A stretch of 36,853 bases of DNA. It comes from Spirochaetes bacterium ADurb.Bin133 (GTDB lineage Bacteria; Spirochaetota; GWE2-31-10; MWDO01). Positions 4,861 through 26,553 of this stretch are shown in pieces. Below the pieces are notes generated by a model. It ran no database searches, was not told the DNA's origin, and saw nothing but the letters and a program-made list of their open reading frames with translations. Within the stretch, counting starts at the first letter, position 1; the number at the start of each line of letters is the position of its first letter. Both the position numbers and the translations under genes were made by a program. The stretch covers positions 1-36,853 of the forward strand of contig MWDO01000028.1 in assembly GCA_002070605.1 (NCBI GenBank), read 5' to 3'.

Positions 4861-4890
4861 CGGGCGTAAGCTAAGCTAAAATTTTCCTTT

Positions 4891-5715: not shown

Positions 5716-5750
5716 TACAAACCTCTTATTTTTTATATTTTTCCCCTATT

Positions 5751-6381: not shown

Positions 6382-6396
6382 TTTTTTTTTGTAAGT

Positions 6397-6426: not shown

Positions 6427-6452
6427 TATTACTTTATCCGAAAGGAGACGTT

Positions 6453-7019
6453 ATGTTTATGAGATTCTTATTAAGCGGTTTGATTGCGTTTGTCCCTTGC
6501 TTTATTTGGGCTCAGTCGCTGCCAAAACCGGATAAAGACTATTTGTATACCGAATTTAGCTCCGTCAGGAAGCTAAAATACGTTAAAAAACCGATAGTTT
6601 CGAGCGGATATATCGCAATGAACGGTAAAGAGGATTTTATATACCGTCAAGAGACCCCTACCCTGCTTGAGATAAAAAAAATTGGCGATGCGGCGTTCTA
6701 TAAAAAGGAGAATATCGCTCCCATACAGATAGATTTGTCTAAGTCAAATTTCGACGAAAGTTATAGCGTAATTTTTTTATTTTACGGAGACGACGAAAAG
6801 GTAAGCGAGTATTTTAATATTACTAAGACTTTTAAAAACAATATAGATTACTACGATATTTATCCCAAAAAACAGGGAACGATCAAGCAGGTCTCAGCTA
6901 CCGGACTTGGAGATAAACTTTACTCGATTGATATGACCTACGCCGACGGGTCGACTCTCTCTTACAAGTTTGCCAATAGCGTTACGGGGACGAAACCCGA
7001 CGATAAATACTTTAAATAA
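6453..7019 (+). CDS. LolA-like periplasmic lipoprotein carrier
   Basis: This 188-residue protein has a Sec signal peptide ending around WAQ (residues 1-21), so it is periplasmic. The mature region resembles the LolA/LolB beta-barrel fold. It has LKYVKKPIVSSGYIAMNGKE followed by DFIYRQETPTLLEIKKIGDAAFYK, the region where LolA proteins recur as "shared substrate-error, glycine, then W/Y of the P-loop-like strand". LolA carries lipoproteins from the inner to the outer membrane. Its neighbours include a lipoprotein gene and, further away, lnt. AAAGGAG sits just before the first of two close ATGs (6453), which fixes the start. The LolA assignment rests on pattern and size only. A generic outer-membrane-lipoprotein-sorting-like protein is the alternative. 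Confidence 0.6.
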   Translation: MFMRFLLSGLIAFVPCFIWAQSLPKPDKDYLYTEFSSVRKLKYVKKPIVSSGYIAMNGKEDFIYRQETPTLLEIKKIGDAAFYKKENIAPIQIDLSKSNFDESYSVIFLFYGDDEKVSEYFNITKTFKNNIDYYDIYPKKQGTIKQVSATGLGDKLYSIDMTYADGSTLSYKFANSVTGTKPDDKYFK

Positions 7020-7043
7020 CTCCGCTAAACCCCTTCCGCGCCG

Positions 7044-8114: not shown

Positions 8115-8138
8115 CCCGTCGCCTCTTTATTATATTAA

Positions 8139-8166
8139 ATAATACCATAAAAAATAATATTATCAA
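8139..8166 (-). promoter_or_regulatory. Predicted promoter of the diguanylate cyclase gene
   Basis: On the minus strand, TTGATA (8166-8161) and TATTAT (8144-8139) are separated by 16 bases. The -35 box lies about 30 bases from the -35 of the divergent LUD-gene promoter, so a single regulator could control both. Confidence 0.45.
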
Positions 8167-8197
8167 TTAATATTTTTCTTTATTTTTTTAATATCGC

Positions 8198-8247
8198 TTG
8201 ATATATTTATTAATGAATGTTATACTTAAGTCGGAAAAAACTTTCCG
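8198..8247 (+). promoter_or_regulatory. Predicted promoter and leader hairpin of the LUD-domain gene
   Basis: TTGATA at 8198-8203 and TATACT at 8221-8226 are 17 bases apart. Near the expected transcript start, CGGAAA (8232-8237) and TTTCCG (8242-8247) form a 6-bp hairpin with an AAAC loop. The leader to the ATG at 8326 would be about 90 bases, longer than for most genes here. Confidence 0.45.
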
Positions 8248-8325
8248 TTATGAAAGTTAGATACGGGTCGATTTATTGAAAAACTTGATTTGAAAAAAAA
8301 TATTATTAAAGAAGAAAAGATTTAA

Positions 8326-8967
8326 ATGAACGAATACGCCGAATACAAGAATATCTTAATTCAAAAAACCATAAAAAATCTCGAAAAGAATTTTTTTGAC
8401 GTAATATTTTTAAAGGATAAACTCGAAGTATTATCGTACCTTAAAGAGCTCATCCCCTCCGACGCGGTTATAGGATACGGCGGGTCGAGAAGTCTTGAAG
8501 AGGTAGGTTTTTTTGAACATTTCGCTAAAGAAAACTATCCCAACCTGCTTGATAGAAGAGCCGAAGGGCTTACTCAAGATCAAAAAAGGGCTCTGCAAAT
8601 ATCCGCTCTATCTTCGGATTTTTTTCTCTGTTCCGTTAACGCGCTGTCTATGGATGGGGATTTGGTTTTCATCGATAAATGGGGCAATAGAAACGCGGCA
8701 ATGACTTTCGGTCCAAAAAACCGAATCGTAGTCGTTGGAAAAAACAAGATCGAAAAGACGTTGCCCGAGGCGATATCGAGAGCCCAAAACGTCGCCGCGG
8801 TATTAAATAACATCAGATTTAATACAAAGAACCCATGCTCCGTTCAGGGCGCCTGCGTTAATTGCTCTTCCGCCGAAAGATTGTGTTGCGTTACTACCAT
8901 TATAAGCAGATGCGCGCCAAGCAAATCAATAAAAGTCGTTATAGTCGATGAAAATTTCGGTTTTTAA
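8326..8967 (+). CDS. LUD domain protein (LutC/YkgG-like) with C-terminal cysteine cluster
   Basis: This is a 213-residue protein of the LUD (DUF162) family, related to LutC and part of LutB of the lactate utilisation complex. The family pattern is clear: IGYGGSRSLEEVG (about residues 48-60), LLDRRAEGLT, the LCSVNALSMDGDLVFID region, and TFGPKNRIVVVGKNKI (about 126-141). The C terminus adds a cysteine cluster, C-x5-C-x2-C-x6-C-C and one more near SRCAPS, which could bind a metal or Fe-S centre. No LutA or LutB gene is in the window, so lactate oxidation cannot be claimed. Many stand-alone LUD proteins of anaerobes have no known substrate. The ATG at 8326 follows an AAAGAAGAAAAG purine-rich stretch. 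Confidence 0.85.
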   Translation: MNEYAEYKNILIQKTIKNLEKNFFDVIFLKDKLEVLSYLKELIPSDAVIGYGGSRSLEEVGFFEHFAKENYPNLLDRRAEGLTQDQKRALQISALSSDFFLCSVNALSMDGDLVFIDKWGNRNAAMTFGPKNRIVVVGKNKIEKTLPEAISRAQNVAAVLNNIRFNTKNPCSVQGACVNCSSAERLCCVTTIISRCAPSKSIKVVIVDENFGF

Positions 8968-9012
8968 GAATAATCGCTTGAATTTTTTTAAAAATGATTT
9001 ATTCTCTATTAT

Positions 9013-10212
9013 ATGAAAAATATTTTATTGGCGTTGTTGATTTTATTACGCGCGCAATCTTTATTTTCTACGGAAAACTTTATATTAAGAAAGTGCGCTT
9101 TATTAAATCCAAAAAACAGTCAAAACGTTTCAACTTATAATATCATAAAAAATGAGACGATTAAAATTCTCGAAACTCAAACTTACCTAAAAAAAATTAA
9201 CTATTTTGACATAAACCGTCTAAAAAAAAATATCGATCTTATTAAAGACCTTGACAACCTCAATAATTTAAAACTTTTTTACATCAAAACAGACGTCGAT
9301 TCTTTGATTATTTTGGACGTTATAGAAGAGCGCGACCATTATACCGTCGACGTTAATATAGTCGATATTATAAATAATTTGGACTATATCAGGAGTTATA
9401 ACGTATCAAAAAGGTATTTTTACGACGATCTTAACAAATTTGCCGAATTTATAAGAAACATAACCGAAGACGATTTCAAACCGGTCGAGTTCAACGAGCT
9501 AAAAAGAAAAAAAAAGAATCAAAAAATAGTATTAAGAAACAACCCCCTATATAACCTAAGTCTCTCGGCGGGTCTGGGCGTAACTTCCGGAAACGCATCC
9601 GATAGCGAAAGTCAAATTATATTTACGGGACCAAACGTCTATATAAACATCGATACAAAACTCAAATCGTTTTATATGGGCGCGTTGTTTGAATGGACTC
9701 CGCTTTTTAACGAACCGCTCGACAGGTTTACCTCTAACGAGAACGATAAAAACAAAATATTTTTAAATAACTTTTTTGGAAGCGCCTCTTTCGGCGGACT
9801 TTTTTTTGTCGAAACTTTTCTTTTCGGAGGAGGAGCAGCTTTTTCATATCAAAACATTTATAGCCAAATTCAAAAAAATTCGAGCGGGTTGTCTGAGTTT
9901 AACGTAAAAAATTTTAATTTATTATTTTTTTACCTCAAATTTTCTTTTATCCCAATAAAAGAGGCGATTATCTCTCTGGACGTAGGTTCTTTTTTTTCAA
10001 TTACAGATATTAAAAATATTATCCCCTCAACTTTTTTTCCGCTTTACCTGAATTTTACTTTTTCATACGTTTTTTATAAAAATATTTTCTTCGAGGTAAG
10101 AATCCCCTCTTATTTGATCCAGGTAAACAACTCTCAGAATTATAGTAAAATTTATATGAAGTTTATCTTAGATATAGGGTTAGGTTTTAAAATAGAATGG
10201 TATAAAAAATGA
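9013..10212 (+). CDS. Probable outer-membrane beta-barrel protein with N-terminal periplasmic domain
   Basis: This 399-residue protein has an N-terminal Sec signal (MKNILLALLILLRAQSLFS). Residues about 20-160 alternate helices and strands and read like the small alpha/beta domain seen in TolB-N or CsgG-like proteins: DSLIILDVIEERDHYTVDV, then helices. From about residue 175 onward the sequence is alternating aromatic and glycine-rich strands, typical of an outer-membrane barrel (LSLSAGLGVTSGN and later strands). It overlaps the next gene by four bases (ATGA), and that gene has the same layout, so they are probably paralogues expressed together. No Shine-Dalgarno is visible before 9013. A possible promoter (TTGAAT 8978-8983, TATTCT 9000-9005) would start the transcript almost at the ATG. 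The barrel assignment is inferred from strand pattern. Confidence 0.75.
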   Translation: MKNILLALLILLRAQSLFSTENFILRKCALLNPKNSQNVSTYNIIKNETIKILETQTYLKKINYFDINRLKKNIDLIKDLDNLNNLKLFYIKTDVDSLIILDVIEERDHYTVDVNIVDIINNLDYIRSYNVSKRYFYDDLNKFAEFIRNITEDDFKPVEFNELKRKKKNQKIVLRNNPLYNLSLSAGLGVTSGNASDSESQIIFTGPNVYINIDTKLKSFYMGALFEWTPLFNEPLDRFTSNENDKNKIFLNNFFGSASFGGLFFVETFLFGGGAAFSYQNIYSQIQKNSSGLSEFNVKNFNLLFFYLKFSFIPIKEAIISLDVGSFFSITDIKNIIPSTFFPLYLNFTFSYVFYKNIFFEVRIPSYLIQVNNSQNYSKIYMKFILDIGLGFKIEWYKK

Positions 10213-11453
10213 AAAAACTAATATTTATATTTTTATTGTTTACCGGCGCGTCTCTTTTTTCTCAAACCGAGAGTATTTTCTATAAGATTCTCCTTAAAAA
10301 ATTTGAGAACTTAGACGAAAAAACGGAGACCGACTTTATGAAAGAGTTGATTTTTGATACCGCAAAAAAAGAATTGTCGGCTAAATTTGACGTTATCTCC
10401 TACGACGATTTTTCCGCGCCGCTAATGACGGACGACGAAGTAAAAATTCTAGCTCGGACGTCGATAGAAAAAATTGATTTTTTCTGTTCGGGTTACTACT
10501 TAGAACGCGACAACGTCGTTAAAGTTGTTTTAAAATTTTACGACGCCAATACTTCGCTTTTGATATATACAAAAGATATATATTGCGAAAACGTCGTCGA
10601 TCTATACGGAATAATCGCAAACGAGTCAAGAGATTTGATAAAATTTGCGTTTGATTATATTAACTTAAAACAAACTAAGAGTTCTAAAAAAAGCGCTTAT
10701 AGAAAAAAAGACGTCGTTAATTTAAAAGACGAAAACTTTATATTTTTTCAAACGGGACTCGTATATTCCAATCTCTATTTTCACGCTATGTCGAGAGATA
10801 TTTCAAACGATATAGATATTTCATCGTATAAAAACTGCCAAACAAATTATATCTCTCCAATGTGTAATTTTGAAATTTACAAGTCGAATAAAGACAATCT
10901 TCACGGATTCGGATTATTGTTTGAAATCCCGATTGTTTTTCCAATCCCGAGATTTTTTATGAACAACAAATTATCTATGAGTTACATTTTTGGATTTAGA
11001 AAGAAATATTTTTTTAAGTTCGGCATAGAACTGGTAAACTTGAATTACTCAAAATATTCGACCCCTTCCGGCTCGTCTATAAGCGTCTCTTTCCTGGGAA
11101 TAGGGGGTTCGTTCAATTTCAGATATATCGTCGACGCGGCTAATATTTATTTTGAGACGGGAATCGAGATTATTCCCACTATAACGCCTATTAAGAATCG
11201 AGACGGCTACGGATTCGTTCCGTTTAATTTTATCGTAAACAATAGCTCTCTGGGAGGCAGTCAATATATCCCTATTACGCTTTCTAACGCTCTCGGATAC
11301 TTTTTTAATAAAAATATCGGCATATATATATCGCATAATATATACATAATAAAAGTAGATTATAAAACTAAAGCTACTTTCAGCTACGGAAAAGACTTAG
11401 GAATAGGTAATAGAATAGCGCTGGGATTTGTTTTTAAAAGTTTTTTCAATTAA
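10209..11453 (+). CDS. Probable outer-membrane beta-barrel protein, paralogue of the upstream gene
   Basis: This 414-residue secreted protein has the signal MKKLIFIFLLFTGASLFS. Residues about 22-160 form an alpha/beta domain with IDFFCSGYYLERDNVVKVVL followed by a FYDANTSLLIYTKDIYCENV strand pair and a DLYGIIANESRDLIKFAF helix. This strand-strand-helix order is the pattern of TolB-N/CsgG-like domains. After a basic linker (about 160-175), the remainder is beta-rich with many aromatic and Gly residues, consistent with a membrane barrel. It starts inside the stop of the preceding gene (ATGA overlap), so translation is coupled. The substrate or binding partner is unknown. Downstream lies the repeat cluster and the toxin-antitoxin pair. 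Confidence 0.75.
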   Translation: MKKLIFIFLLFTGASLFSQTESIFYKILLKKFENLDEKTETDFMKELIFDTAKKELSAKFDVISYDDFSAPLMTDDEVKILARTSIEKIDFFCSGYYLERDNVVKVVLKFYDANTSLLIYTKDIYCENVVDLYGIIANESRDLIKFAFDYINLKQTKSSKKSAYRKKDVVNLKDENFIFFQTGLVYSNLYFHAMSRDISNDIDISSYKNCQTNYISPMCNFEIYKSNKDNLHGFGLLFEIPIVFPIPRFFMNNKLSMSYIFGFRKKYFFKFGIELVNLNYSKYSTPSGSSISVSFLGIGGSFNFRYIVDAANIYFETGIEIIPTITPIKNRDGYGFVPFNFIVNNSSLGGSQYIPITLSNALGYFFNKNIGIYISHNIYIIKVDYKTKATFSYGKDLGIGNRIALGFVFKSFFN

Positions 11454-11715: not shown

Positions 11716-12000
11716 ATGGTAAATTTAACTATTAGAAATATACCAAACGACATAATTAATAAGATTAAAGTTTTATCGCAAATAAATAAAAGAAGTATGA
11801 ATAGCGAAATTTTATTACTTTTAGAAACAGGTATACATAAAAAGTTAAAAGCGGGAAATGAAAAAAGACAAATTTCAAAAAATACTCAAATAAATATTTG
11901 GAAAAAATTATCCGGTTTATGGAAAGATGATAGAAACACGGATCAAATTATTAATGATATTTATTCTAATAGAACTAGCGGACGGGATTTTACTTTATGA
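11716..12000 (+). CDS. FitA/VapB-type ribbon-helix-helix antitoxin
   Basis: This is a 94-residue protein. The first about 45 residues fit the Arc/FitA ribbon-helix-helix pattern: strand VNLTIRNIPNDI, helix IINKIKVLSQINKRS, then MNSEILLLLETGI. The C-terminal part is variable and contains WKKLSGLWKDDR, the usual toxin-wrapping segment. It should neutralise the PIN toxin encoded downstream and repress the operon as a complex. Its stop overlaps the toxin start by four bases (ATGA). Codon use differs from most neighbours, with Asp mostly GAT. The assignment is strong from the pair structure. Confidence 0.88.
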   Translation: MVNLTIRNIPNDIINKIKVLSQINKRSMNSEILLLLETGIHKKLKAGNEKRQISKNTQINIWKKLSGLWKDDRNTDQIINDIYSNRTSGRDFTL

Positions 12001-12389
12001 TATTGCTTGATACCGATGTTTGCATAGAACTATTGAGGAATAATAAAACGGTAATAGAAAATCGAATTAATACGGATGATGATGTAGCCATATCATTTAT
12101 GACTGTTGCAGAATTGTTTTTTGGCGCTGAAAACTCAAATTATAGAGATGAAAACTTTAGTTTGGTAGAAGAATTTATTTTAACGGTTCCTATAATTGAT
12201 TCAGACATAAACATAATGAAAAAATTTGCTGCTATAAAGTCTGAACTAAAAAAAAGAAATGAAATAATTGCCGATGCAGATATATTGATAGCTGCTACTA
12301 CTTTAGAAAAGTGTACTAAACTTATAACAGGGAACGCCGGACATTTTGAAAGAATTAACGGTTTACAATTAGAAAATTGGATAAGATAA
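11997..12389 (+). CDS. vapC: VapC-type PIN-domain ribonuclease toxin
   Basis: This 130-residue protein has a PIN nuclease fold. Acidic metal-binding residues are D5 in ILLDTDVCIELL, E39 in MTVAELFFGAE, and D93/D95 in IADADILIAATTL. N113 in TGNAGHFERINGLQLENW is the usual last motif of VapC toxins. Family members cleave specific RNAs, often tRNA or rRNA, with Mg2+ or Mn2+; the target here cannot be told. All catalytic positions look intact, so the toxin should be active. Nine of ten Asp codons are GAT, whereas neighbouring genes use GAC heavily. The pair is flanked on both sides by palindromic repeat clusters, which together suggests recent acquisition. Confidence 0.93.
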   Translation: MILLDTDVCIELLRNNKTVIENRINTDDDVAISFMTVAELFFGAENSNYRDENFSLVEEFILTVPIIDSDINIMKKFAAIKSELKKRNEIIADADILIAATTLEKCTKLITGNAGHFERINGLQLENWIR

Positions 12390-13853: not shown

Positions 13854-13882
13854 TTGACATAAATTTAGAAATATCATAAAAT
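13854..13882 (+). promoter_or_regulatory. Predicted promoter of the giant coiled-coil operon
   Basis: TTGACA (13854-13859) and TAAAAT (13877-13882) have a 17-base spacer. Transcription would start near 13889, giving a leader of about 80 bases. The rest of the 311-bp gap (13660-13853) is A/T-rich with no gene recognised. Confidence 0.6.
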
Positions 13883-13970: not shown

Positions 13971-16900
13971 ATGGATCTATTAACTCTATTCTTGTCGATA
14001 TTTGGTTCTATTTCTATTGTGTTGATCGGAAGATTTCTCGATAAAAAAAATAGAAGTTTTGAAAAAATTGCCAGATTGTCTAAAAACATCAAAGAGGAGT
14101 TGTATCGTTTTGCCGAGGACAAGTTTCAGTCTTTAAAAGATTTCGACAACTGCATAGACGTTTCTCTTCAAAAAGGGGACGGACTGCTCGAAGTTTTAAA
14201 TAGTTCTATAAACGAACTCGAAGAGAGATATAATAACGTCGACAAAGAAAAGGAGAGAGTATCCTCGTTTTTTCAAAAAATAGACGTTCTGGATAGCGAC
14301 CTTCGAAATATAGCCGAACAAGCTCGAGAGATTCAAAACAGCAAAGAGCTTATAGAATCCGTTGAAAACAAAATTGATAAATTCAAGAAAGAGATAGCTC
14401 TCGTTGAAAAGGATATGTATAGAATCAGCGACGATCTCAAAAAAGAGAACGTCGAACAGTTAAAACAGATAAAATCCTCAATAATCGCGGAGACTGAGGT
14501 CGAATTGTCGTCGGTTAAAGAAAATATCTCCGCGCTAAGATCAAACTTAACGCTGGGCAATCAAGAAATGGCGTCGGCGATAAAACAAAACGGCAAAGAG
14601 TTGCGGGACGATCTGGAAAACACCCGCGCCTCTATAGAAAATCTTAAAGAGGTATACGACAAGCAATACGTCGAGTCGCTTGAACTTTTTAAAGAAGAGA
14701 TATCCTCCATCAATAATACGGTTACTAAAATGAAGGAGAATTATATCGCCGACATTGTTGAAAAAATCAAAGAAATTGATAAAAACAACGAAGATAAACT
14801 TGAGTATTATAAAAACAGTTATAAAGAGGTATATATCAACTATGACAATTTAATTAACGATAAACTGTCGACGTTAGAAAATACCGTCAATTCTTATGAA
14901 AACAGAGCTTCTAACATTGAAAAAGACTCAATTTCAAAGTACGAAGAGATAAAAAACAGGAATTTATTCGAACTACGCTCTTCGTATCAAAACATTCTGA
15001 AAGAAATCGAGCAATACGGCGCAAAAATCGGCGATAACGTCAAATTCAATATCATAACTACGGGAAAAGAGACGGAAGACAGATATAAAAATCTCTATGA
15101 AAAGCTAAAATCCCTCGAAAATGAAGCTATGAACAGAAATATCGATTTTGAAAACCAGATTGCCAAATCTATCGAATCTTTTAACAATATTCAGATGGAT
15201 TTTGATAAACGAACTTCTGAAAAACTCGATAACTTCAACGAAATGTTTGAAAGAATCGGGGCCTCGGGCTTGAATCTGGAGAATAAAATATTCGCTACTA
15301 TCAAGGATAAATTAACGGCTTTTAAAACCGACGTAAACGATAAATTAAAATCTATGGAAATAGACGTAATCAATTCAAGGTCTCTATTTGAAGAAGAAAT
15401 TAACTCTTTCTCGTTAAAAATCGGCTTAATGAAAGACGAGATAGCGAATATTGACCTAAACCTTCAAAATTCTAAAGATGCGATAGATGAAAAATCGAAT
15501 TTTATAAAGGAAGAAGCCTTTAAAGAAATCGAGAACGTTAATCTGCAAATTACAAATAACGTCTCAATGTTGAAGTCGTATTACGACAACGAAAAAGAGA
15601 AGGTTTTTGAAAAAATCGACGAATCTATAAAATCTCTGCTAAATTCCTCCGACGATAAATCTGCGGAAATTTCTCACAAATACAATCAAACGCTTGAAAA
15701 TATCGAAAAAGAATTGCAAACTATTAAAAACTCGTATTCCGATAAAATATCTGCGATTAAAAACGATATTTACGAAAACGCCAATAAAATTGAACAAGAG
15801 TTGCTCGCTAAACAAAACTCGGTCGCCGACGATCTTTTTGAGAAGTTCAACGCCGTTAAAGATGAAATTGAAAACGACAATATTAGGACCGTTGAAAATA
15901 TCAAACAATCCTTCGCCGATAAGAATACTGAAATTGAAGAGTCTCTCAATTTAATTTCCATAAAATTCTCAAACTTCAATCAGGAGATCGAAAATAACTT
16001 TTTAAAAATCGGCGACAACATAAAAGAAAAAATTACCGAAGTCGATTCAAAACTTGATTATAATATTTCGAATATAATAGACAAATCAAATTCTATAGAA
16101 AATCGATATAAAGAGAGCTCTTTAAAAATAATTGAGCAAAATAGCGTTAAAATGGAGGAATTTGATCGCGAATTTGAGGATTTAAAAGTCCAATTTGAAT
16201 ATTTTAGGGACAATATCTATAAAGACGTTCAAAGTAAAGTAGACGCGAGCTCCGAAGAAATAAACAGCCTGCTTTCATCGGGGTTGGTAAAAATAAATGA
16301 AATCAATGAAAAAGTTAAAAATGAAGCTAAAAATCTGATCGGACTTTACAAATCCGACGTTAATAAAATTAAGATTTCCATAAAAAATATCGACGAAAAG
16401 TATAACGAGAAACTATCGTCCAAATACGACGATCTTGATAAGAGTCTCCTCGCTAAAATACGCGAAGCAAACGATATTATCGAAAATATACAAGAGATCA
16501 GAAATAAATACGAATTAAAGGCGAACGAATCGTTTACCAAAGTTTACGACCTTGAAACTCTATATACTTCCAAAATTAGCGAAATTGAAGAAGAATTTAA
16601 GAACAACTCCGCAAAACTTCTTGAAAAAAGAAATATGGAAATCGAATCGTTATCCTATAATTACAACGAAATTAATGATAAGATCGAAAACTTGAAGAGC
16701 AGTATCGATAAAGTCGTCGACGATAAGATATTAAACGCAAGAAATACGATCGACGAAACTTTTGAATCCAGCAAAAACGTACTAAAAGAGTATTATCAAA
16801 AACTTGAAGAGCAAACGGTAAGAAAGATTAACGATTTTAAAGGCGATATAGTTAAGATCAAAGATACCATAAAAGGAATAGACGAAAAATACAGCCAATT

Positions 16901-19900
16901 TATCGTTGAAAAAATATCTACCGCCGACGAAAAATTCAGAGAAAAATTTTCTGAAATCGACGCCGGTTATAGAAACAGTTTGGAAAACCTCAACGCAAAA
17001 GTAATAGTTTACGAGAGCGATTTTGCAAAGAAAATTGAAGAGATCGAAACGGTTTACTCCGTTAAAATGGATCAAATAATTAACGATAAGGCTTTAAAAG
17101 TTGATTATATCGCTGAAAATTTTGATAAACTCAACTCGGATATCGCGACGGTAAAAGATAATCTCTATAAAGATATCGACGGACGTATCGCGGGCTCGAT
17201 TGAAAAAGCCAACGCGACGTTAGACGAAAGATTGTCAAATTTCGACTCCGAAATACAAACGCTCGAGTCCGGCGCCGCGAAAGAAATTGATATTTTCAAA
17301 TCCTCCCTTTTTAAAATCAAAAATCTCATCCAAAATGTGGATAAAAATTTTTCTCAGAAATTCAACCTTAAACTTACCGACTTAAACGGAAAACTTGAGT
17401 CTAAAATAGAGAATATCGAGAAAGAGTATAGAGAAAAAACCGACGCGCTTATAAAAGAAAAATCCGATCAATTGAACGTATTTAAAGGCGATTTTCAAAC
17501 TATAAACTCTGAAATAGACAGATTAAAAACAAAATTGGACGTTGAGATAAACGAAAAGATAACTCAAGGCAACGGATTTTTAGAGGAGATTTTTGAACAA
17601 GGAAAAAGCTCTATTTCCGAACAGTATAAATTTCTCGAAGACGAAACCAAAAGAAATATCAAACTATTTCAAAACGATATATTGAAAATCAAGCAGAACA
17701 TTCTGCAAATAGACGAAAGAATTAACGAAAAAATATCCGATAAGTTCGACAACGTAGATCTAAGATTAACGGATAAAATCAATGAAATTCAGGATAAATA
17801 CAAAGAGTCGCTCGACGAGATGAGCGCCAAAGTCTCTACCATTGAAAACGATTTTAGAAATAAACTCGACGAAATAGAAGATATTTACAACGATAAAAAT
17901 GAAAAAATGATAAATAAGAGTTTTGAGAAATTCAGCGCTCTTTCGCAGAAATTCGGCGATTTATCAAACAACCTGACCGCTTATAAAGAAAAAATCGAAA
18001 AAGACATCGAGACGACTCTTGAAACCGGTAAAGTAGAAGTCGATAAATTGTGGAAAGATAGCGCCGCTGAAATAGAAGCGGATATTTTGAATATGAAAAC
18101 CAGACTCGAAATTGAAATTAATGAGAAACTTATGAACGAAAAATCAAATATCGAAGAAATAATATCGAATAGAAACAGAGAAATAATAGAGAATTATAAA
18201 ATTTTTGAAAACGAAACGCTGATAAAAATGAATTACTATAAAGAAAATCTTGAAAAATTTGAGACCTCTTTAGTGAACGTCGATAAAAAATTCGACGAAC
18301 ACATATTTAAAAAACTTGCCGACGTCGACCGCGCTTATTATGAAAAAGTTAATGGAATATTAGACTCCGTCAAACTTATTGAAAACGATTACAACGGTAA
18401 GATAACCGAAATTGAATCGGATTATCTTGCTAAATCGAGCGAAATAATCGATCAAACAAAAGAAGATTTTGATAATATCCGGAGCAAATTCGACGCCTTA
18501 TTAAATCGTATAAATAAAGTCGAAACCGCCGTCGAGACTGAAATATCGAAAAAAATCGAGAACGGTCTATCCGAAGCCGACGGCATAGTCGGCGAAAAAT
18601 TATCGCAGTTAAATTCGGTTATAGATAATTTTGACCAAACGACAAACTCCAAAATTGATTCGGTCAAATCAAAACTGGACGATTTTGACAACGTTGTGGT
18701 AAATCTTGAGAATAAATTCGATATTAAAATCGGTCAAAAAATGAGCGATATAGAAATTCAATACGGCGATAAGGTCAAAGAACTTAACCAAAATATCTCC
18801 CTGATAGAAGAAGACTTTAAAGAGAAAATACGCTCGATAAGATCGGATTGCGACGAGGTTAACCGCAGTTCAATCGTCGTCGTTGAAAACGAAGTTAATA
18901 TTTTAAAAAATACTATAGATGAAATATCGGCAAAAATCGAGAACGGTCTATCCGAAGCCGACGGCATAATCGGCGAAAAATTATCGCAGTTAAATTCGGT
19001 TATAGATAATTTTGATCAAACGACAAACTCCAAAATTGATTCGGTCAAATCAAAACTGGACGATTTTGACAACGTTGTGGTAAATCTTGAGAATAAATTC
19101 GATATTAAAATCGGTCAAAAAATGAGCGATATAGAAATTCAATACGGCGATAAGGTCAAAGAACTTAACCAAAATATCTCCCTGATAGAAGAAGACTTTA
19201 AAGAGAAAATACGCTCGATAAGATCGGATTGCGACGAGGTTAACCGCAGTTCAATCGTCGTCGTTGAAAACGAAGTTAACGTCTTAAGAAATACCATAGA
19301 GGAGACTTCAAAACTAATTAATTCGATAAAATCCAATCTCGACGGCGAAATACAAGAAAAACTTGAAAACGGCAGAAAAGAGATAGACTGGATGTTGACT
19401 TTCGGCTCTGAAAAGATCAAAGAGGAGTTTAAAAATATCGAAAAAGATACAATCGAAAACATTAGTTACTGTAAAACAAATATTTCGCAATTAAAAGACG
19501 ATATTTCAGGAATGGAGACTAAATTCAACGATATATACGAAAATAAGATCTATCAATTTGATCTCGACGTAACCGTTAGAAAAAATCAGATTTTAGACGA
19601 TTTAAACCTGTCGAAAGAAGATTTGGATAATAAATTAAACGCTTTTGAAAACGAATTAACCGCCAAACTGCAAAATATAAAAGATGAATTCTCAAACGTC
19701 GATCATAAATTTGACGTACACATCGAAGATCTATTGAAAAACGCCGACGAAAAATACAAATCCAATCTTGATTCTATTAGCGCTCGTTATTCGCAAAATT
19801 TCAAAAGCGTTACGGAATCTCTAGAAAATTTGAAAACCGAATTTGAGACAAATTTATTTGATATAGAAGAGAGATTAAAAAACCGGGCTGAATTTTTCAT

Positions 19901-22295
19901 CAATCAAACCGATAAGAAATCGGGAGATATTACCGCGTTATTTAACGAAATGAGCTCTACAATTCAATATCTCAAAGATTCGATGAAAACCGAAATAGAT
20001 AACGCCTTAACCGGAGCTAACAACCAAATTAATATAATGCTTGAAGACGGTCAAAACGCTCTGTTAAGAGATAAGAGTAAATTTGAAAAAGAGGCGGCGG
20101 ATTTACTTTCGGGTTACAAAAACGAGTTGACCTCGATACAATATGAAATATCCGAAATCGATAAAAAATACGACGACAGACTTAACGAAAAATTTCAATA
20201 CATCGATCAATCGTATAACTCCAAGATACTCAACATAAACGATACTATTAATTCCGAGATGGATAACTTAAATAATAAAATAATCGTTATAGAGAGCGAC
20301 GCTGAAAATAAAATCGCCTCGTATAAAAAAGAGATTGAAAATCTATCCGCTTCTATGAAAGAGATAGATAGAAAATACAATGAAGAATTAGATAACAAGA
20401 TGAAAGAGTACGAAGAGATTTTACGCGACAAACTTACCTCCCAAACTATCAATTACGACGAACAATTGAAAAAATCCATTGAAAAAACCGACGAATTCAG
20501 AACCGCTTTTACAAAAAGATTAGACGAGATACTGTTAAAGTATAGGGACGACGCCGACGCCATAACCGGCGATTATGAAAATCGATACAATAAATTTAGC
20601 TCCGACATATCGGACTTAAACGCCAAAGTCGACGAGATCAAATCCGCCGTAGACAACGACCTCGTTTCTTCTTTTAACGAAGGGAAAAACGCAATTAAAG
20701 AGATATTAGATTCGGGTAAAATCGATCTTTCAAAGCAGTACAGAGAACTTGAAAACGATACGGTCGCTAAGATCAATAATTACCGAACCGAGCTATATAT
20801 GATCAAGCAGAGCATATCGGGAATCGAAGATAAAATGAACGAGTATATTTCGGATAAAGCTAAAGACGTCGACGGCAAACTTGACGCTACCCTACTCTCT
20901 ATAACGAACAAATACTCTATAAACGCCGATAAACTTGACGAAAAACTCGACAAACTTGAAAAACAATACGTAGAAAAGTTTAAAGAACTTGAATCCGACG
21001 TAATTCAAAGAAATAACGCCGTTATCCAAAAAAATCTTGATACCTTCGACTCTTTCGTAGAAAACTTCAACTCGTTGTCGAAAGATATTTCAACGCTCAA
21101 ATCCAAGATCGACGAAGAGGTCGCCGTTAAAATAGAAGAAGGTAAAAAAATCGTAGCCGACGTTTTGGACGAAGAGACCGGCAAGATGAAAGAAAAATTT
21201 GCTAAAACTGAAGCCGAGACTATCCAAAACATCGAGGAGTACAAAAAAGAGATGATGAAATTGCAGTTAAATATGAAGCAAATCGACGACAGATTTACGG
21301 CGAGATACCTTGAACACTCCAACGTCCTTGACAAAAAAATAGCCGAGATTGATATGGATATAAAGAAATTTGAAAAATCGACGGGGCTCTTTGAAAAAGC
21401 TAATAATATGAAAGAAAAATTAACAAACGATATCAAGGAGATCAAAGAGAGTATAGCTTCTATAAAGAGCGACAGAAACGATATAATCGAGGTTGAGAAG
21501 AAAATGCTCAATATCGGCAATATTTACTCGATAACGGAAGAAAAATATTCAAAACTGCTAGGAGATAAAAAGAAAATCGACAATATCTCTTTAGTCGTAA
21601 ACGAACTTAAACAGATTACGGACGATATTGAGAATAAGATGGAAACTATCAAAGGCGCCAAAATCGCTATATCGAATCTTGAAAATAAGATTGACTTGAC
21701 GACTGAAAAATTCAAAAAAATCGAAACGTATATCGAAGAGCTGGATAATAAAGAGGATAAAATCGCCGGTTCTATCCAAAGTATCGACGGTTTCGATTCG
21801 ATTACAGACTCGCTGAATAAAAAAATTGATTCTCTTGAGAAGAAATTCGACGATCTAGATTTTAAACGCTCGACTTTTGAGAAGAGTTTTAAGAGTTTTG
21901 AAAAAGACGCGGCGATTTTGACTAAATCTGAAATAAAAATCGGCGAAGTGGTAGATAAGTTCAACCAGATGGACTTGTTAGTTGAAGACCTTGAGACGAG
22001 AACGGAGTATATCAATAAAATGAGAGAGTGGCTCGTCAAAGCCGAAACTAATATTGAGAACCTTAACGCCGATACGGATAAAAGAATCAAATTGATAGAG
22101 TCTCTTTTGTCTAAAGCTTCGCAAAGTCCCGGAATACAAAATAAATTAAAAGACGACAACTCAAAAAAAGAGGTTGTTTTACAATTAAGCGCGCAGGGTT
22201 GGTCGATCGACGACATTGCAAAGAATTTGTCTTTGTCTGTCGGAGAAGTCGAGTTGATATTAGACTTAGAGTACAATACCGCGCCGCGTAGGTAA
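13971..22295 (+). CDS. Giant membrane-anchored coiled-coil protein with C-terminal helix-turn-helix-like cap
   Basis: This 2774-residue protein has a single N-terminal membrane helix (about 3-21) followed by KKNRSFEK, so the bulk is probably cytoplasmic. Residues about 25-2715 are charged heptad-type coiled coil made of degenerate modules of roughly 125-190 residues, each with an IDEKYxEKI-like motif and an EIExxY motif. I find no proline before about residue 2720. The last region (REWLVKAETN near 2684, then GWSIDDIAKNL at 2743-2753 and SVGEVELILDLEY at 2756-2768) looks like the C-terminal cap of SwrB/YlxL (DUF6115) and DUF2802 proteins, which act with flagellar export. Long coiled-coil proteins are known in spirochaetes (one class is called SpiroCoCo, from memory). 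The gene downstream is a shorter paralogue. A recent in-frame repeat lies at 18540-19301. A role in cell shape, flagellar positioning or the cytoskeleton is inference. Confidence 0.9.
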   Translation: MDLLTLFLSIFGSISIVLIGRFLDKKNRSFEKIARLSKNIKEELYRFAEDKFQSLKDFDNCIDVSLQKGDGLLEVLNSSINELEERYNNVDKEKERVSSFFQKIDVLDSDLRNIAEQAREIQNSKELIESVENKIDKFKKEIALVEKDMYRISDDLKKENVEQLKQIKSSIIAETEVELSSVKENISALRSNLTLGNQEMASAIKQNGKELRDDLENTRASIENLKEVYDKQYVESLELFKEEISSINNTVTKMKENYIADIVEKIKEIDKNNEDKLEYYKNSYKEVYINYDNLINDKLSTLENTVNSYENRASNIEKDSISKYEEIKNRNLFELRSSYQNILKEIEQYGAKIGDNVKFNIITTGKETEDRYKNLYEKLKSLENEAMNRNIDFENQIAKSIESFNNIQMDFDKRTSEKLDNFNEMFERIGASGLNLENKIFATIKDKLTAFKTDVNDKLKSMEIDVINSRSLFEEEINSFSLKIGLMKDEIANIDLNLQNSKDAIDEKSNFIKEEAFKEIENVNLQITNNVSMLKSYYDNEKEKVFEKIDESIKSLLNSSDDKSAEISHKYNQTLENIEKELQTIKNSYSDKISAIKNDIYENANKIEQELLAKQNSVADDLFEKFNAVKDEIENDNIRTVENIKQSFADKNTEIEESLNLISIKFSNFNQEIENNFLKIGDNIKEKITEVDSKLDYNISNIIDKSNSIENRYKESSLKIIEQNSVKMEEFDREFEDLKVQFEYFRDNIYKDVQSKVDASSEEINSLLSSGLVKINEINEKVKNEAKNLIGLYKSDVNKIKISIKNIDEKYNEKLSSKYDDLDKSLLAKIREANDIIENIQEIRNKYELKANESFTKVYDLETLYTSKISEIEEEFKNNSAKLLEKRNMEIESLSYNYNEINDKIENLKSSIDKVVDDKILNARNTIDETFESSKNVLKEYYQKLEEQTVRKINDFKGDIVKIKDTIKGIDEKYSQFIVEKISTADEKFREKFSEIDAGYRNSLENLNAKVIVYESDFAKKIEEIETVYSVKMDQIINDKALKVDYIAENFDKLNSDIATVKDNLYKDIDGRIAGSIEKANATLDERLSNFDSEIQTLESGAAKEIDIFKSSLFKIKNLIQNVDKNFSQKFNLKLTDLNGKLESKIENIEKEYREKTDALIKEKSDQLNVFKGDFQTINSEIDRLKTKLDVEINEKITQGNGFLEEIFEQGKSSISEQYKFLEDETKRNIKLFQNDILKIKQNILQIDERINEKISDKFDNVDLRLTDKINEIQDKYKESLDEMSAKVSTIENDFRNKLDEIEDIYNDKNEKMINKSFEKFSALSQKFGDLSNNLTAYKEKIEKDIETTLETGKVEVDKLWKDSAAEIEADILNMKTRLEIEINEKLMNEKSNIEEIISNRNREIIENYKIFENETLIKMNYYKENLEKFETSLVNVDKKFDEHIFKKLADVDRAYYEKVNGILDSVKLIENDYNGKITEIESDYLAKSSEIIDQTKEDFDNIRSKFDALLNRINKVETAVETEISKKIENGLSEADGIVGEKLSQLNSVIDNFDQTTNSKIDSVKSKLDDFDNVVVNLENKFDIKIGQKMSDIEIQYGDKVKELNQNISLIEEDFKEKIRSIRSDCDEVNRSSIVVVENEVNILKNTIDEISAKIENGLSEADGIIGEKLSQLNSVIDNFDQTTNSKIDSVKSKLDDFDNVVVNLENKFDIKIGQKMSDIEIQYGDKVKELNQNISLIEEDFKEKIRSIRSDCDEVNRSSIVVVENEVNVLRNTIEETSKLINSIKSNLDGEIQEKLENGRKEIDWMLTFGSEKIKEEFKNIEKDTIENISYCKTNISQLKDDISGMETKFNDIYENKIYQFDLDVTVRKNQILDDLNLSKEDLDNKLNAFENELTAKLQNIKDEFSNVDHKFDVHIEDLLKNADEKYKSNLDSISARYSQNFKSVTESLENLKTEFETNLFDIEERLKNRAEFFINQTDKKSGDITALFNEMSSTIQYLKDSMKTEIDNALTGANNQINIMLEDGQNALLRDKSKFEKEAADLLSGYKNELTSIQYEISEIDKKYDDRLNEKFQYIDQSYNSKILNINDTINSEMDNLNNKIIVIESDAENKIASYKKEIENLSASMKEIDRKYNEELDNKMKEYEEILRDKLTSQTINYDEQLKKSIEKTDEFRTAFTKRLDEILLKYRDDADAITGDYENRYNKFSSDISDLNAKVDEIKSAVDNDLVSSFNEGKNAIKEILDSGKIDLSKQYRELENDTVAKINNYRTELYMIKQSISGIEDKMNEYISDKAKDVDGKLDATLLSITNKYSINADKLDEKLDKLEKQYVEKFKELESDVIQRNNAVIQKNLDTFDSFVENFNSLSKDISTLKSKIDEEVAVKIEEGKKIVADVLDEETGKMKEKFAKTEAETIQNIEEYKKEMMKLQLNMKQIDDRFTARYLEHSNVLDKKIAEIDMDIKKFEKSTGLFEKANNMKEKLTNDIKEIKESIASIKSDRNDIIEVEKKMLNIGNIYSITEEKYSKLLGDKKKIDNISLVVNELKQITDDIENKMETIKGAKIAISNLENKIDLTTEKFKKIETYIEELDNKEDKIAGSIQSIDGFDSITDSLNKKIDSLEKKFDDLDFKRSTFEKSFKSFEKDAAILTKSEIKIGEVVDKFNQMDLLVEDLETRTEYINKMREWLVKAETNIENLNADTDKRIKLIESLLSKASQSPGIQNKLKDDNSKKEVVLQLSAQGWSIDDIAKNLSLSVGEVELILDLEYNTAPRR
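18540..19301 (+). repeat. In-frame 381-bp tandem duplication inside the giant gene
   Basis: Copies start at 18540 and 18921, an offset of exactly 381 bp (127 codons). Positions 18551-18898 and 18932-19279 differ at only two bases, one silent (GAC/GAT) and one Val/Ile. Immediately after this block the copies diverge sharply while the proteins remain similar (NILKNTIDE versus NVLRNTIEE). This suggests recent gene conversion between older neighbouring modules, or a duplication with diverged edges. Confidence 0.95.
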
Positions 22296-22331
22296 GCGTT
22301 TGGAAATATAATATTTTAGGAGATCTTTAAA

Positions 22332-25300
22332 ATGAACGCCGCTATTTTATTTATATTATCGATTTGTATATCTACGACAATTCTTCTGATTTTCCGACAG
22401 TTGGATAAAAACAACAGAAGTTTTGATAAAGTTTCAAGATTATATAAAACGATAAAGGAGGATTTGAGTAAATTTTCTGAAGAAAGATATACAGAACTGG
22501 AAGATTTTGATAAAAATCTCGAATCTTCAATGAAAAAAGGCTCAAATTTGCTTGAAACTCTCTCCAAAGCTACGACTCATATTGAGAAAAACGCGGTTTT
22601 TGACGAAAACGTCGCAAAAAGATTGACTCAAATCGAGAGCGAAATAGAAAAAATTACCGCGGCGCCTAATTCTCAAAGCGCGGCTCCCGTAAACGCGGGA
22701 TCTTCCGATAGAAAAGAGATGAGAAACGAGATGAAAATCTTTAAGAATGAAATAGCAAATATGACAAAAAATCTCGATAAAAAGAAAAAAGAGATAACCG
22801 AGTATTTTAAAGGCGTTGAAACTAAAAATAAAATTGAATTTGACTCCAGAAAAAACGAGATTTTTGATTTTATAAAATTGCAAGAATCTATATTTATCGA
22901 TAATTCTAAAAGATATAACGCAGATATAGATAAAATTAATGGGCAAATTACAAAATTAAACAATAAATACGTAAAAGAGGCTGAAAAAGAGTATGAATTG
23001 ATTACCGAAAATTATAAAATGAAGTTTGAAGATTTTAAAAACAGTTACGAAAATCTTGAAAACGAAGCTCAAAATAATCTTGAAACCAAAATTAATGATT
23101 ATTCCGCTTACGTTGCAAGATTGGAAAGCAGAGCCGAAGGATTAAGCGAAAAAATAATTAAAAATCTCGAAAACAAAAAGTCGGACTACCTATTGGATTT
23201 AAAAGAGTTGGATTCCAATTTAAGAAGCGATTATACCAAACATTCGGAAAAAATGAGAGCGGAAAGTAAAAACTACATTCTTAAATTATTAAAAGATAAC
23301 GAAGATAAATATAAGACATATTACGACAATTTTAAAAAAATTGAGAGCTCCTCGCAACTGACAATAAAGGATTTTGAGAGCTTCATAGCCGAATCTTCCG
23401 ATAAGATAAAAAATCTGAAAGATTATACGTATAAAGAAATAGACGAAAGGCTGAAGGACTTCAATCTGCATATAAATAATTCAAACGAGATGGGGATAAG
23501 ACTTGAGTTAGAAATATTCAATAATATTAAGACAAAACTCGAAGCGTTTAGATCGGAAGTCTTAAAAAATATCGGAGACGTCAAATCCGGAATCGATAAC
23601 AATATCAATACGTTTGAAACTCAAATTAATAATAAATATTCGGGCATTAATAGTAGTTATTCGGATTTATTGAAAAAATACGATTTTCTTACGAAAGAGA
23701 TAGACGATATTAAAAACAATTTTAACGCCGTTATTGCCGATTTTTCAGATAAACAGAAATCTATCTTTAATCAAATATCTGAAAACAATCTATCTCTAAA
23801 AAATAGCGTCGACGAAGATTTGAAAAATCAAAAAATTAAGTATGAAACAGACAAAGAGGCGTATCTTAACGATCTTTCGTCTCAATTCAACCTTCTCGAA
23901 GAAAAAAAGAAGACGTTTAAAGACGATATTATGGAAAATCTTGAGAAATACAAAAATTTGGTTAATACAAATTTAATGAAAATTAAAGGATATTTTGACG
24001 TAGAAAAGGAAAAAACTTTCCAAAATATCGATAAATCTTTATTAAAACTTAATAACGATGCGGACGATAAAACTCTGGAAATTTCAGAAAAATTCGATAA
24101 AACTTATTCAGAATTTGAAAAGAAATTAAAATCTATACACGATAATATGGTCGAGAAAGCTTTAGAAATAGAAAAAGACCTCTTAGGCAAATCGGCCTCT
24201 TTAAATGATTCCCTGGACGATAAAATTGAAAAGTTTAAAGTAGAAATGAACGATAAACGAAGTAAATTTGAACAGGAATTGATAAATGAAAACAATGAGA
24301 TTATTTTTAAAATAAATAGTTTTAAAGACGAGGTTTCGTCAAAATTAAACGAAAGCAGCCAATTTATCGATCAAAATATTTCCGAATCTTCGGAAAAAAT
24401 TAATACCCTAAAGGAAGATTTTACTCAAAAAATGAGTAATATCGAAACTTTTTATTTCGATAAAGGAAAAGAACTTTTAGACGCAAATAAAGAGAAACTC
24501 GACGGTTTCATCTCAAAATTTAACGACATTAATGAAAATATTTACAGTCTTAAGATGAAAATTGAAAATGAAGTTACGGCTCTATCGGATAACGGAATAG
24601 CTCTAATCGGCGATTTATTTACCAAAGGCAGTTCGGAATTATCGGATAAGTATAAAAAATTATCTTCGGAAAGCGACTCTAAAATCGCCGAATATAGAGC
24701 CGAACTTGTTAAAATCAAACAAAATTTCAAGTTTTTCGACGAAAAATATGATCAGAAATTTGACGGTAAAATTGAAGAGTATAACAAGAAATTCGATACA
24801 AAACTTGATATGTTTTCAGAAAAATACAAGATTCATCTGAATGAAGTTTTTGATAAAACTAAAAGCGCCGAGAACAATTTTACAGAAAAAATATCTCAAA
24901 TTGAAAAAGAGTATTTTACAAAAACTGAACAACTTATCGATGGAAACAACAATCATTTATCGGAATTCGTAGTAAAATTCAACGATCTTTCCGATAAACT
25001 TCAAGAGATGAAACTCAAAATCGATATCGAAGTCGGTAAGAAAATCGACGACGGCAAAATAAAGCTTTTGGACGAATATAAAATATTTCAAGCGGAACTT
25101 GACGATATGATGAATAAAGAGATAGAAAATACAAAAGAGAAATACAAAAAAACCGAAGACGAATTAAATATAAAATTATTAAATTATAAAAAAGACGTAA
25201 CGCTTTTGCAAAACAATATCAAACAAATCGACGATAAATTTACCGGTAAATTCCTTGAACACAGTAGTTTTTTAGATAAAAAAATCAATAATATTAACGA

Positions 25301-26234
25301 AAACATTAAAAACTTTGAGAAATCGACGGGGCTTTTTGATCGAGCTTACGCTATGAAAGATAAGTTGTCTATCGAAATAGACGCGATAAAAGACGAAATC
25401 AAAAATATCAAGCAAGATAGAGAGAAAATCTTAGAAGTCGAAAAAAAATTAATGAATATCGACGATATCGCTAAATCTTCAATAGAAAAAAGCGCTCTAA
25501 TAATTTCAGAGAAGAAAAAAATCGATACGATAGCGGAAGTTTTAAACGCGCTAAAAGAGTTGTCGGATTCGGCTTTTACAAAAATTGACGACATAAAAAA
25601 CGCCAAAGTCCTGCTGTCTAACATCGACCAAAAAATCGAGGAGACCAGTCAAAAATATAACTCCTTAGAAGAGTATATAGGGTCCATTATCGAAAAGGAA
25701 ACTGAAATGAGAGCTCTTTCCGATAATATAGTCAACCTCAACGATAAATTTGTCGATTACAATCAAAAAGTAGAATCAATTAATAAAAAAATTGAAGATT
25801 TGGAGTTTAAGCGGGTTACTTATGAAAAGAGTTTTAAAACTTTTGAGAAGGACGCTTCGCTTATAACCAAATCCGAGGCAAAAGTTGCGGAGGTAATCGA
25901 CAAGTTTAATCAGATGGATTCGCTTATAGAAGACCTTGAGATGAGAACCGAGTATGTAAATAAAATTCGAGAATGGCTCGTTAAAGCCGAAACCAACATC
26001 GAAAACATGAATAACGAAACCGATAAAAAAATAAAACTACTCGAATCGCTTATGTCAAAATCAGCCGAAAGTCCGCTTTTAAAAGAGATAATGAAGGACG
26101 ACTTTGAGAAAAAGGAAATTGTGCTGCAATTGCAATCGCAAGGATGGACAATAGACGATATTGCCAAAAACTTAGAATTATCCGTCGGCGAAGTAGAACT
26201 GATTTTAGACCTTGAATATCCAAGAAAAAGATAA
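22332..26234 (+). CDS. Large membrane-anchored coiled-coil protein, paralogue of the giant upstream protein
   Basis: This 1300-residue protein has an N-terminal membrane helix (about 4-21) followed by RQLDKNNRSFDKVSRLYKTIKEDL, closely matching the same part of the upstream protein. A short proline/alanine-rich hinge (about 112-126, with two prolines) leads to a coiled coil of some 1100 residues with no further proline until about 1264. The C-terminal 430 residues align along their length with the giant protein: KFLEHSSFLDKKI, NFEKSTGLF, FNQMDSLIEDLEMRTEYVNK, REWLVKAETNIEN, and the cap GWTIDDIAKNL then SVGEVELILDLEY. The gap to the upstream gene is 36 bp, with AGGAG before the ATG, so both are probably one operon. 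The two proteins could co-assemble through matched ends. No enzymatic domain is seen. Confidence 0.9.
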   Translation: MNAAILFILSICISTTILLIFRQLDKNNRSFDKVSRLYKTIKEDLSKFSEERYTELEDFDKNLESSMKKGSNLLETLSKATTHIEKNAVFDENVAKRLTQIESEIEKITAAPNSQSAAPVNAGSSDRKEMRNEMKIFKNEIANMTKNLDKKKKEITEYFKGVETKNKIEFDSRKNEIFDFIKLQESIFIDNSKRYNADIDKINGQITKLNNKYVKEAEKEYELITENYKMKFEDFKNSYENLENEAQNNLETKINDYSAYVARLESRAEGLSEKIIKNLENKKSDYLLDLKELDSNLRSDYTKHSEKMRAESKNYILKLLKDNEDKYKTYYDNFKKIESSSQLTIKDFESFIAESSDKIKNLKDYTYKEIDERLKDFNLHINNSNEMGIRLELEIFNNIKTKLEAFRSEVLKNIGDVKSGIDNNINTFETQINNKYSGINSSYSDLLKKYDFLTKEIDDIKNNFNAVIADFSDKQKSIFNQISENNLSLKNSVDEDLKNQKIKYETDKEAYLNDLSSQFNLLEEKKKTFKDDIMENLEKYKNLVNTNLMKIKGYFDVEKEKTFQNIDKSLLKLNNDADDKTLEISEKFDKTYSEFEKKLKSIHDNMVEKALEIEKDLLGKSASLNDSLDDKIEKFKVEMNDKRSKFEQELINENNEIIFKINSFKDEVSSKLNESSQFIDQNISESSEKINTLKEDFTQKMSNIETFYFDKGKELLDANKEKLDGFISKFNDINENIYSLKMKIENEVTALSDNGIALIGDLFTKGSSELSDKYKKLSSESDSKIAEYRAELVKIKQNFKFFDEKYDQKFDGKIEEYNKKFDTKLDMFSEKYKIHLNEVFDKTKSAENNFTEKISQIEKEYFTKTEQLIDGNNNHLSEFVVKFNDLSDKLQEMKLKIDIEVGKKIDDGKIKLLDEYKIFQAELDDMMNKEIENTKEKYKKTEDELNIKLLNYKKDVTLLQNNIKQIDDKFTGKFLEHSSFLDKKINNINENIKNFEKSTGLFDRAYAMKDKLSIEIDAIKDEIKNIKQDREKILEVEKKLMNIDDIAKSSIEKSALIISEKKKIDTIAEVLNALKELSDSAFTKIDDIKNAKVLLSNIDQKIEETSQKYNSLEEYIGSIIEKETEMRALSDNIVNLNDKFVDYNQKVESINKKIEDLEFKRVTYEKSFKTFEKDASLITKSEAKVAEVIDKFNQMDSLIEDLEMRTEYVNKIREWLVKAETNIENMNNETDKKIKLLESLMSKSAESPLLKEIMKDDFEKKEIVLQLQSQGWTIDDIAKNLELSVGEVELILDLEYPRKR

Positions 26235-26235: not shown

Positions 26236-26490
26236 CCGTCGGTTTTTTGGGGCGGGGAGGAAAATGACACATATGACGTTAAGAATAAAATTGGACGCAT
26301 ATGCGGCGCTACGCTCCCCGATAAAAGCGGGAATTCCCGTTTTGAATATAATAAAATACTAAAACTTTCTTCATACCGGGACATTATCGGGGCTTGCGCC
26401 GCTAAGAACAAATGTCCCATATGTGTCAAAAAAAATATTGACACATATGGGACGCGCCGCGCTTCAACGAATAAAATTGACACATATGGT
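26236..26490. repeat. Composite repeat and CATATG palindromic repeat cluster 4
   Basis: The cluster starts two bases after the stop of the paralogue gene with CCGTCGGTTTTTTGGGGCGG, then TGACACATATG at 26265-26275, GTTAAGAATAAAAT and GACGCATATG at 26294-26303. Further units are CATATGTGTCA at 26418-26428, TGACACATATG at 26439-26449 and TGACACATATG at 26478-26488. The first about 65 bases match the composite elements at 30826 and 36678. The gap to the next gene (26235-26618) holds nothing else except a weak promoter; the reading frames in it are repeat-derived. Confidence 0.85.
26414..26453. repeat. Perfect 16-bp inverted repeat with 8-base loop
   Basis: GTCCCATATGTGTCAA (26414-26429) and TTGACACATATGGGAC (26438-26453) are exact complements around AAAAAATA. 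This is the longest perfect hairpin seen in the window. It consists of two palindromic-repeat units facing each other. It could form a cruciform in DNA or a stable RNA stem, and could act as a bidirectional terminator after the coiled-coil operon, although no T run follows directly. Confidence 0.9.
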
Positions 26491-26553
26491 TTTTTTTATT
26501 TTCATCCCGCGCCCCCAAAAAACTGAAGAAATATAGATTTTTTAAAATTTATA

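What the first reader, a model, noticed from the sequence alone, without database searches (positions are those of the whole stretch)
13971..26234. Tandem giant coiled-coil proteins with a SwrB/DUF6115-like architecture
Both proteins have an N-terminal membrane helix, a very long coiled coil, and a C-terminal motif G-W-[ST]-I-D-D-I-A-K-N-L ... S-V-G-E-V-E-L-I-L-D-L. This is the layout of SwrB/YlxL (Firmicutes) and DUF2802 (gammaproteobacteria) proteins, which are small and linked to flagellar export or motility genes. Here the spacer is up to about 2700 residues. I infer that these could be spirochaete relatives in which a cap that binds a flagellar or polar complex is carried on a rod. The resemblance is by pattern only.
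Basis: partly seen in the sequence, partly recalled or inferred. Interest (0 to 1): 0.88.

Follow-up and report, generated by a model that had tools for sequence, protein, structure and literature searches.

The report
Giant spirochaete rods with flagellar caps
The two giant rod-shaped proteins belong to a named but unstudied spirochaete family (SpiroCoCo), found from syphilis and Lyme relatives to Brachyspira where they reach 7,800 residues, and they end in a small cap related to proteins that organise bacterial flagella, which makes them good candidates for the part that arranges the internal flagella of spirochaetes.

Summary
Observation confirmed. Window ORFs of 2,774 and 1,300 aa each have one N-terminal membrane helix, a rod almost free of proline and a ~45-residue C-terminal cap. 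The cap matches Pfam DUF6115 above its cut-off (40 bits against 27) and DUF2802 below it, carries the three invariant residues of the polar flagellar factor FipA at identical spacing, and is predicted as a helix-turn-helix. It is nearly phylum-wide: about 1,100 aa in Treponema- and Leptospira-like genomes, 2,166 in a Borrelia-like one, 3,900-7,800 in Brachyspira. The rod repeats every 3.64 residues, not 3.5. A separate short TM+cap protein sits in flagellar or chemotaxis clusters, also in this genome. In two lineages without flagella, the examined homologue keeps the N-terminal module but lacks the cap. Best reading: a membrane-anchored cytoplasmic tether whose cap engages a flagellar assembly factor and helps place periplasmic flagella. 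Flagellar linkage is well supported; the partner (FlhF or export apparatus) is inferred. This order carries a tandem long+short pair. Family already named; the SwrB/FipA and flagella link appears new.

The parts
13971..22295 (+). Giant SpiroCoCo protein A, 2,774 aa (P0001)
   Evidence: ORF; SpiroCoCo_C 193.6 bits (cut-off 125) and SpiroCoCo_N 78.2 bits (cut-off 75)
13977..14054 (+). N-terminal membrane helix and juxtamembrane basic motif R-F-L-D-K-K-N-R-S (aa 3-28)
   Evidence: Single hydrophobic segment; R21 and D24 at least 90% conserved in 32 long forms; +4 net charge after the helix suggests a cytoplasmic rod
14007..14621 (+). SpiroCoCo_N module of protein A (aa 13-217)
14622..21314 (+). 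Variable rod of protein A (aa 218-2448), 3.64-residue period, no proline; up to ~330 nm if one extended helix
   Evidence: length at 0.1485 nm per residue is arithmetic, not a measurement
18552..19280 (+). Near-exact internal duplication in the rod: aa 1528-1643 and 1655-1770, 115/116 residues and 345/348 bases identical
21315..22262 (+). SpiroCoCo_C module of protein A (aa 2449-2764): ~270-residue neck (period 3.45) plus cap
22152..22277 (+). Cap of protein A (aa 2728-2769), DUF6115/DUF2802-like HTH; G2743, E2759, L2762
22332..26234 (+). Giant SpiroCoCo protein B, 1,300 aa (P0002), 36 nt downstream of A
   Evidence: ORF; SpiroCoCo_C 174.6 bits (over cut-off), SpiroCoCo_N 46.4 bits (below cut-off 75)
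22998..25259 (+). Variable rod of protein B (aa 223-976), 3.64-residue period
25260..26207 (+). SpiroCoCo_C module of protein B (aa 977-1292)
26100..26222 (+). Cap of protein B; G1271, E1287, L1290; AlphaFold three-helix HTH
13854..13882 (+). Promoter-like site TTGACA-17-TAAAAT, 88 nt upstream of protein A
   Evidence: 11 of 12 consensus matches; consensus match only, total count near chance

Best explanation
The pair are SpiroCoCo-family proteins: single-pass membrane anchor (N-terminus out, rest in the cytoplasm by the positive-inside rule), a long nearly straight alpha-helical rod of lineage-specific length, a conserved neck, and a terminal helix-turn-helix-like cap homologous to DUF6115/DUF2802 (SwrB/FipA type). 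The cap most likely docks on a flagellar assembly factor (FlhF by analogy with FipA, or the basal body/export apparatus by analogy with SwrB), so the protein tethers or organises periplasmic flagellar basal bodies at a reach set by the rod. Shown: family membership, cap homology and fold prediction, near phylum-wide presence, absence of the cap in homologues from two flagella-less lineages, 3.64 period. Inferred: topology, oligomer, partner, positioning role.
For: DUF6115 above cut-off for both caps; 45/45 homologues match, 27/45 DUF2802. FipA's three invariant residues G110, E126, L129 (G and L needed for FlhF binding; PMC11620751) fall at the same spacing in both caps. AlphaFold cap is a three-helix HTH, pLDDT >90 in its core. 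SpiroCoCo profiles over cut-off. Small SwrB/FipA-like relatives sit next to flhA-flhF-flhG-fliA-fapA in several relatives and next to dnaK-dnaJ-cheW-cheR-cheA in this genome; the FlgV paper calls this gene a flagellar TM+HTH protein (PMC11607428). Strong cap hits in 227 of 344 FliF-positive against 6 of 49 FliF-negative spirochaete genomes, and all four of those six that were tested have FlhA. G371 (no FliF, FlhA or FlhF) and G260 (no FliF or FlhA) keep SpiroCoCo_N (160.8, 88.4 bits) but have no SpiroCoCo_C or cap.
Against: The giant genes are not in flagellar operons. The capless forms kept in flagella-less lineages mean the membrane anchor and coil have some other role too. The cap/FliF association is not phylogenetically independent: it is dominated by one family (f49) plus G371. 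No localisation, binding or mutant data were found.
Confidence: 0.6

Rival explanations
1. Cytoskeletal or cell-shape element: the rod itself (membrane-anchored straight helical bundle) is the functional part, stiffening or organising the cytoplasm or inner membrane, and the cap is an accessory link.
For: Enormous rod lengths (proteins of 713 to about 7,800 aa, with a 9,127-codon open frame in one genome) with a conserved 3.64 period; the anchor and coil are retained without the cap in flagella-less G371 and G260.
Against: The best conserved parts are the two ends, not the rod; cap-bearing forms follow flagella; the cap belongs to a flagellar family.
Confidence: 0.17
2. Membrane-to-nucleoid tether: the HTH cap binds DNA and the rod anchors the chromosome to the membrane.
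For: The cap is predicted as an HTH; Foldseek best matches are DNA-binding HTH domains such as NarL/GerE and resolvases; weak HTH_23 and sigma70_r4 profile hits.
Against: The third helix is acidic in the window caps (GEVELILDLE); Foldseek E-values are not significant (none at or below 0.001); the related FipA cap binds a protein, FlhF (PMC11620751); the cap is absent from the flagella-less homologues examined.
Confidence: 0.1
3. The rod is not a coiled coil but an amphipathic 11/3-type helix lying along the inner face of the membrane, as in apolipoproteins.
For: 3.64 period and hydrophobic positions a/d/e/h of an 11-residue repeat with lysine at the flanks; sub-threshold Pfam apolipoprotein match, 89.0 bits against a cut-off of 90.
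Against: The hydrophobic stripe is narrow (about 4 of 11 positions), as in hendecad coiled-coil cores. Otherwise compatible with the main explanation.
Confidence: 0.12

Closest known systems
SpiroCoCo family coiled-coil protein (NCBIfam NF047514 SpiroCoCo_N, NF047515 SpiroCoCo_C)
   Same: Both window proteins pass the C-terminal cut-off, protein A also the N-terminal one; same layout as Treponema-, Borrelia-, Leptospira- and Brachyspira-like homologues.
   Different: Here there is a tandem pair, seen only in this order; protein B is below the N-terminal cut-off; the family has a name but no published function that I could find.
FipA (DUF2802) of gammaproteobacteria
   Same: One N-terminal membrane helix, cytoplasmic coiled region, C-terminal cap with G/E/L at identical spacing (PMC11620751).
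   Different: FipA is about 163 aa and encoded next to flhF-flhG; the giants are 1,300-2,774 aa and are not; the Pfam cut-off of 33.5 bits is not reached (22-25 bits).
SwrB/YlxL of Bacillus (its DUF6115 membership is from memory; B. subtilis rings for PF19610)
   Same: DUF6115 cap; membrane-anchored flagellar protein that activates type III export (PMC4526659).
   Different: SwrB is small (about 170 aa, from memory); no giant rod or SpiroCoCo modules.
Short spirochaete TM+HTH protein of the flagellar superoperon (PMC11607428)
   Same: Same cap; present in this genome (G000:C74, 185 aa).
   Different: About 200 aa, in flagellar or chemotaxis clusters; far below the SpiroCoCo_C cut-off (32 bits against 125).

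Membership tests
SpiroCoCo | SpiroCoCo_C domain above 125 bits | tested here: met
   193.6 and 174.6 bits
SpiroCoCo | SpiroCoCo_N domain above 75 bits | tested here: inconclusive
   Protein A 78.2 (met), protein B 46.4 (not met); B's N-terminus is part of my own long-form N-terminal model
DUF6115 (PF19610) | Gathering score 27 bits | tested here: met
   40.2 and 40.8 bits for the last ~115 residues; DUF6115 not listed for the full-length sequences
DUF2802 / FipA | Gathering score 33.5 bits | tested here: not met
   22-25 bits
DUF2802 / FipA | Invariant G, E (+16), L (+19) | tested here: met
   G2743/E2759/L2762 and G1271/E1287/L1290; spacing from PMC11620751
DUF2802 / FipA | Gene next to flhF-flhG | tested here: not met
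   The giants lie between unrelated genes; short paralogues do lie in flagellar/chemotaxis clusters
DUF2802 / FipA | Binds FlhF and localises to the pole | not testable with these tools
   Needs binding assays and microscopy
SwrB | Small protein that activates flagellar export | not testable with these tools
   Size differs (1,300-2,774 aa); activity untested

The most novel reading that the evidence does not exclude
SpiroCoCo is a molecular ruler or scaffold of up to more than 1 micrometre: its cap holds flagellar basal bodies or FlhF and its lineage-specific rod length sets how many periplasmic flagella form, or how far from the pole they sit.
Probability: 0.12. Interest if true: 0.92.

Novelty: new member of a known kind. 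Interest (0 to 1): 0.62.

Why it matters
Spirochaetes keep their flagella inside the cell envelope and control their number and place by means that are still poorly understood. A nearly phylum-wide giant protein with a cap of the FipA/SwrB type, absent from homologues examined in flagella-less relatives, gives a concrete testable candidate, and it links a family of unknown function (SpiroCoCo, including Treponema- and Borrelia-like members) to flagellar organisation. The Brachyspira forms, at 7,670-7,832 aa, are among the longest bacterial coiled-coil proteins I know of.

Tried and rejected
SMC/Rad50 matches are far below cut-offs and are generic coiled-coil similarity. A simple heptad coiled coil is rejected by the spectra (MCP control). 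Whether proteins A and B form two separate ancient clades could not be resolved: the cap tree has few supported branches and mixes A and B. The FliF-negative genomes with strong caps seem mostly to be gaps in incomplete assemblies: all four tested have FlhA. Brachyspira first seemed to lack the family with my N-terminal model but has it as its longest forms. Literature for BB0512, TP0408 and SpiroCoCo: no open-access paper found. No solved structure beyond generic helical, HTH or coiled-coil chains was found for the C-terminal module.

Full report
OBSERVATION. Each has one hydrophobic segment, at the N-terminus, followed by a basic stretch, which by the positive-inside rule puts the rest in the cytoplasm (inference). 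The rods of both are almost free of proline (none in A, two in B). Rod A holds a 116-residue stretch twice, 115/116 identical in protein and 345/348 in DNA, so the rod grows by duplication, or the assembly is wrong there.

ROD. Hydrophobic periodicity peaks at 3.64 residues in both rods and in almost all of the other long forms from across the phylum; 43 of 44 sequences lie at 3.63-3.66 and shuffles give no such peak. A chemotaxis receptor from the same window peaks at 3.50, so the method sees heptads where they exist. In the window proteins the last ~300 residues change to 3.45. The rod is therefore probably an untwisted or slightly right-handed bundle of the hendecad type, followed by a left-handed neck; a membrane-lying amphipathic helix is not excluded.

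CAP. The isolated C-termini match DUF6115 above Pfam's cut-off and DUF2802 below it; all 45 C-termini of long forms match DUF6115 at E <= 0.001. The FipA paper reports three invariant DUF2802 residues, G110, E126 and L129, with G and L needed for FlhF binding (PMC11620751). Both window caps have G, E (+16) and L (+19). AlphaFold gives three helices with a confident core, and Foldseek's best matches are HTH domains, though none is significant at E <= 0.001 for so short a chain.

FAMILY. NCBIfam already has the family: SpiroCoCo_C and SpiroCoCo_N. Their borders agree with my division into an N-terminal module of ~220 aa, a variable rod, and a C-terminal module of ~313 aa (neck and cap). My N-terminal model finds it in 304 of 393 Spirochaetota genomes (E <= 0.001) and my cap model, which also finds the short forms, in 333 (233 at E < 1e-8). 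Lengths run from 713 aa (L059) through ~1,050-1,100 in Treponema- and Leptospira-like genomes and 2,166 in a Borrelia-like genome to 3,898, 7,670 and 7,832 aa in Brachyspira; one further Brachyspira frame is open for 9,127 codons. The 7,670-aa form is in the genome of 3,241,804 bp, the published length of B. murdochii 56-150T (PMC3035287). That the Borrelia form is BB0512 and that genome G058 is T. pallidum rests on my memory of sizes. A tandem pair of a longer and a shorter form is seen in this order; other lineages have as a rule one copy.

FLAGELLAR LINK. (1) A small paralogue with the same cap lies after flhA-flhF-flhG-fliA-fapA in several relatives; in this genome it lies before dnaK-dnaJ-cheW-cheR-cheA on contig C74 (these gene names are by similarity to the annotated cluster and by eye). 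It corresponds in position and layout to the TM+HTH protein of the FlgV paper (PMC11607428). (2) Strong cap hits occur in 227/344 FliF-positive and 6/49 FliF-negative genomes (Fisher p 5e-13, not corrected for relatedness); of the six, the four tested have FlhA. (3) Where flagella are truly gone, the homologues examined are capless: G371 (618 aa) and G260 (655 aa, next to a HAD-hydrolase gene as in Treponema) have SpiroCoCo_N but no SpiroCoCo_C. These are two lineages, so the evidence is good but not large.

MECHANISM. The most economical reading is a FipA/SwrB-type cap placed on a long tether: anchored in the inner membrane, it engages a flagellar assembly component and so organises basal bodies. 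FlhF is the first candidate, since FlhF controls number and configuration of flagella in Borrelia (cited in PMC11607428) and binds FipA. Against FlhF: flagella-less G260 and G223 keep FlhF-like GTPases without the cap. An export or basal-body partner, as for SwrB (PMC4526659), would fit as well. The capless relatives show that the anchor and coil can serve something else too.

VERDICT. Ordinary in that the family has a name; of interest in that its cap ties it to flagellar organisers, that it is nearly phylum-wide and reaches extreme size, and that the hypothesis is directly testable.

Noticed in passing
11716-12389: Likely type II toxin-antitoxin pair: FitA-like RHH antitoxin and PIN-domain protein.
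   Followed up: no
18552-19280: Near-exact 116-residue duplication inside rod A, probably recent.
   Followed up: partly
26414-26500: Perfect 16-bp inverted repeat around a T/A-rich loop downstream of protein B, with the motif TTGACACATATGG repeated nearby.
   Followed up: no
L140 (1263-18033): In a Brachyspira genome of 2,555,556 bp the SpiroCoCo gene is split in two overlapping frames (806 and 4,788 aa); the related genome L141 has it intact. Could be sequencing error or a broken gene.
   Followed up: partly
G260:C74:11234-12055 and G223:C34:22873-23355: Flagella-less spirochaetes keep an FlhF-like GTPase.
   Followed up: no
L083 (G000:C12), 1496-10667: This genome's flhA-flhF-flhG-fliA-fapA cluster; the short cap protein that follows it in relatives is here on another contig (C74).
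   Followed up: partly
1740-4860: Two large proteins after MnmE (385 and 653 aa) without any Pfam match.
   Followed up: no
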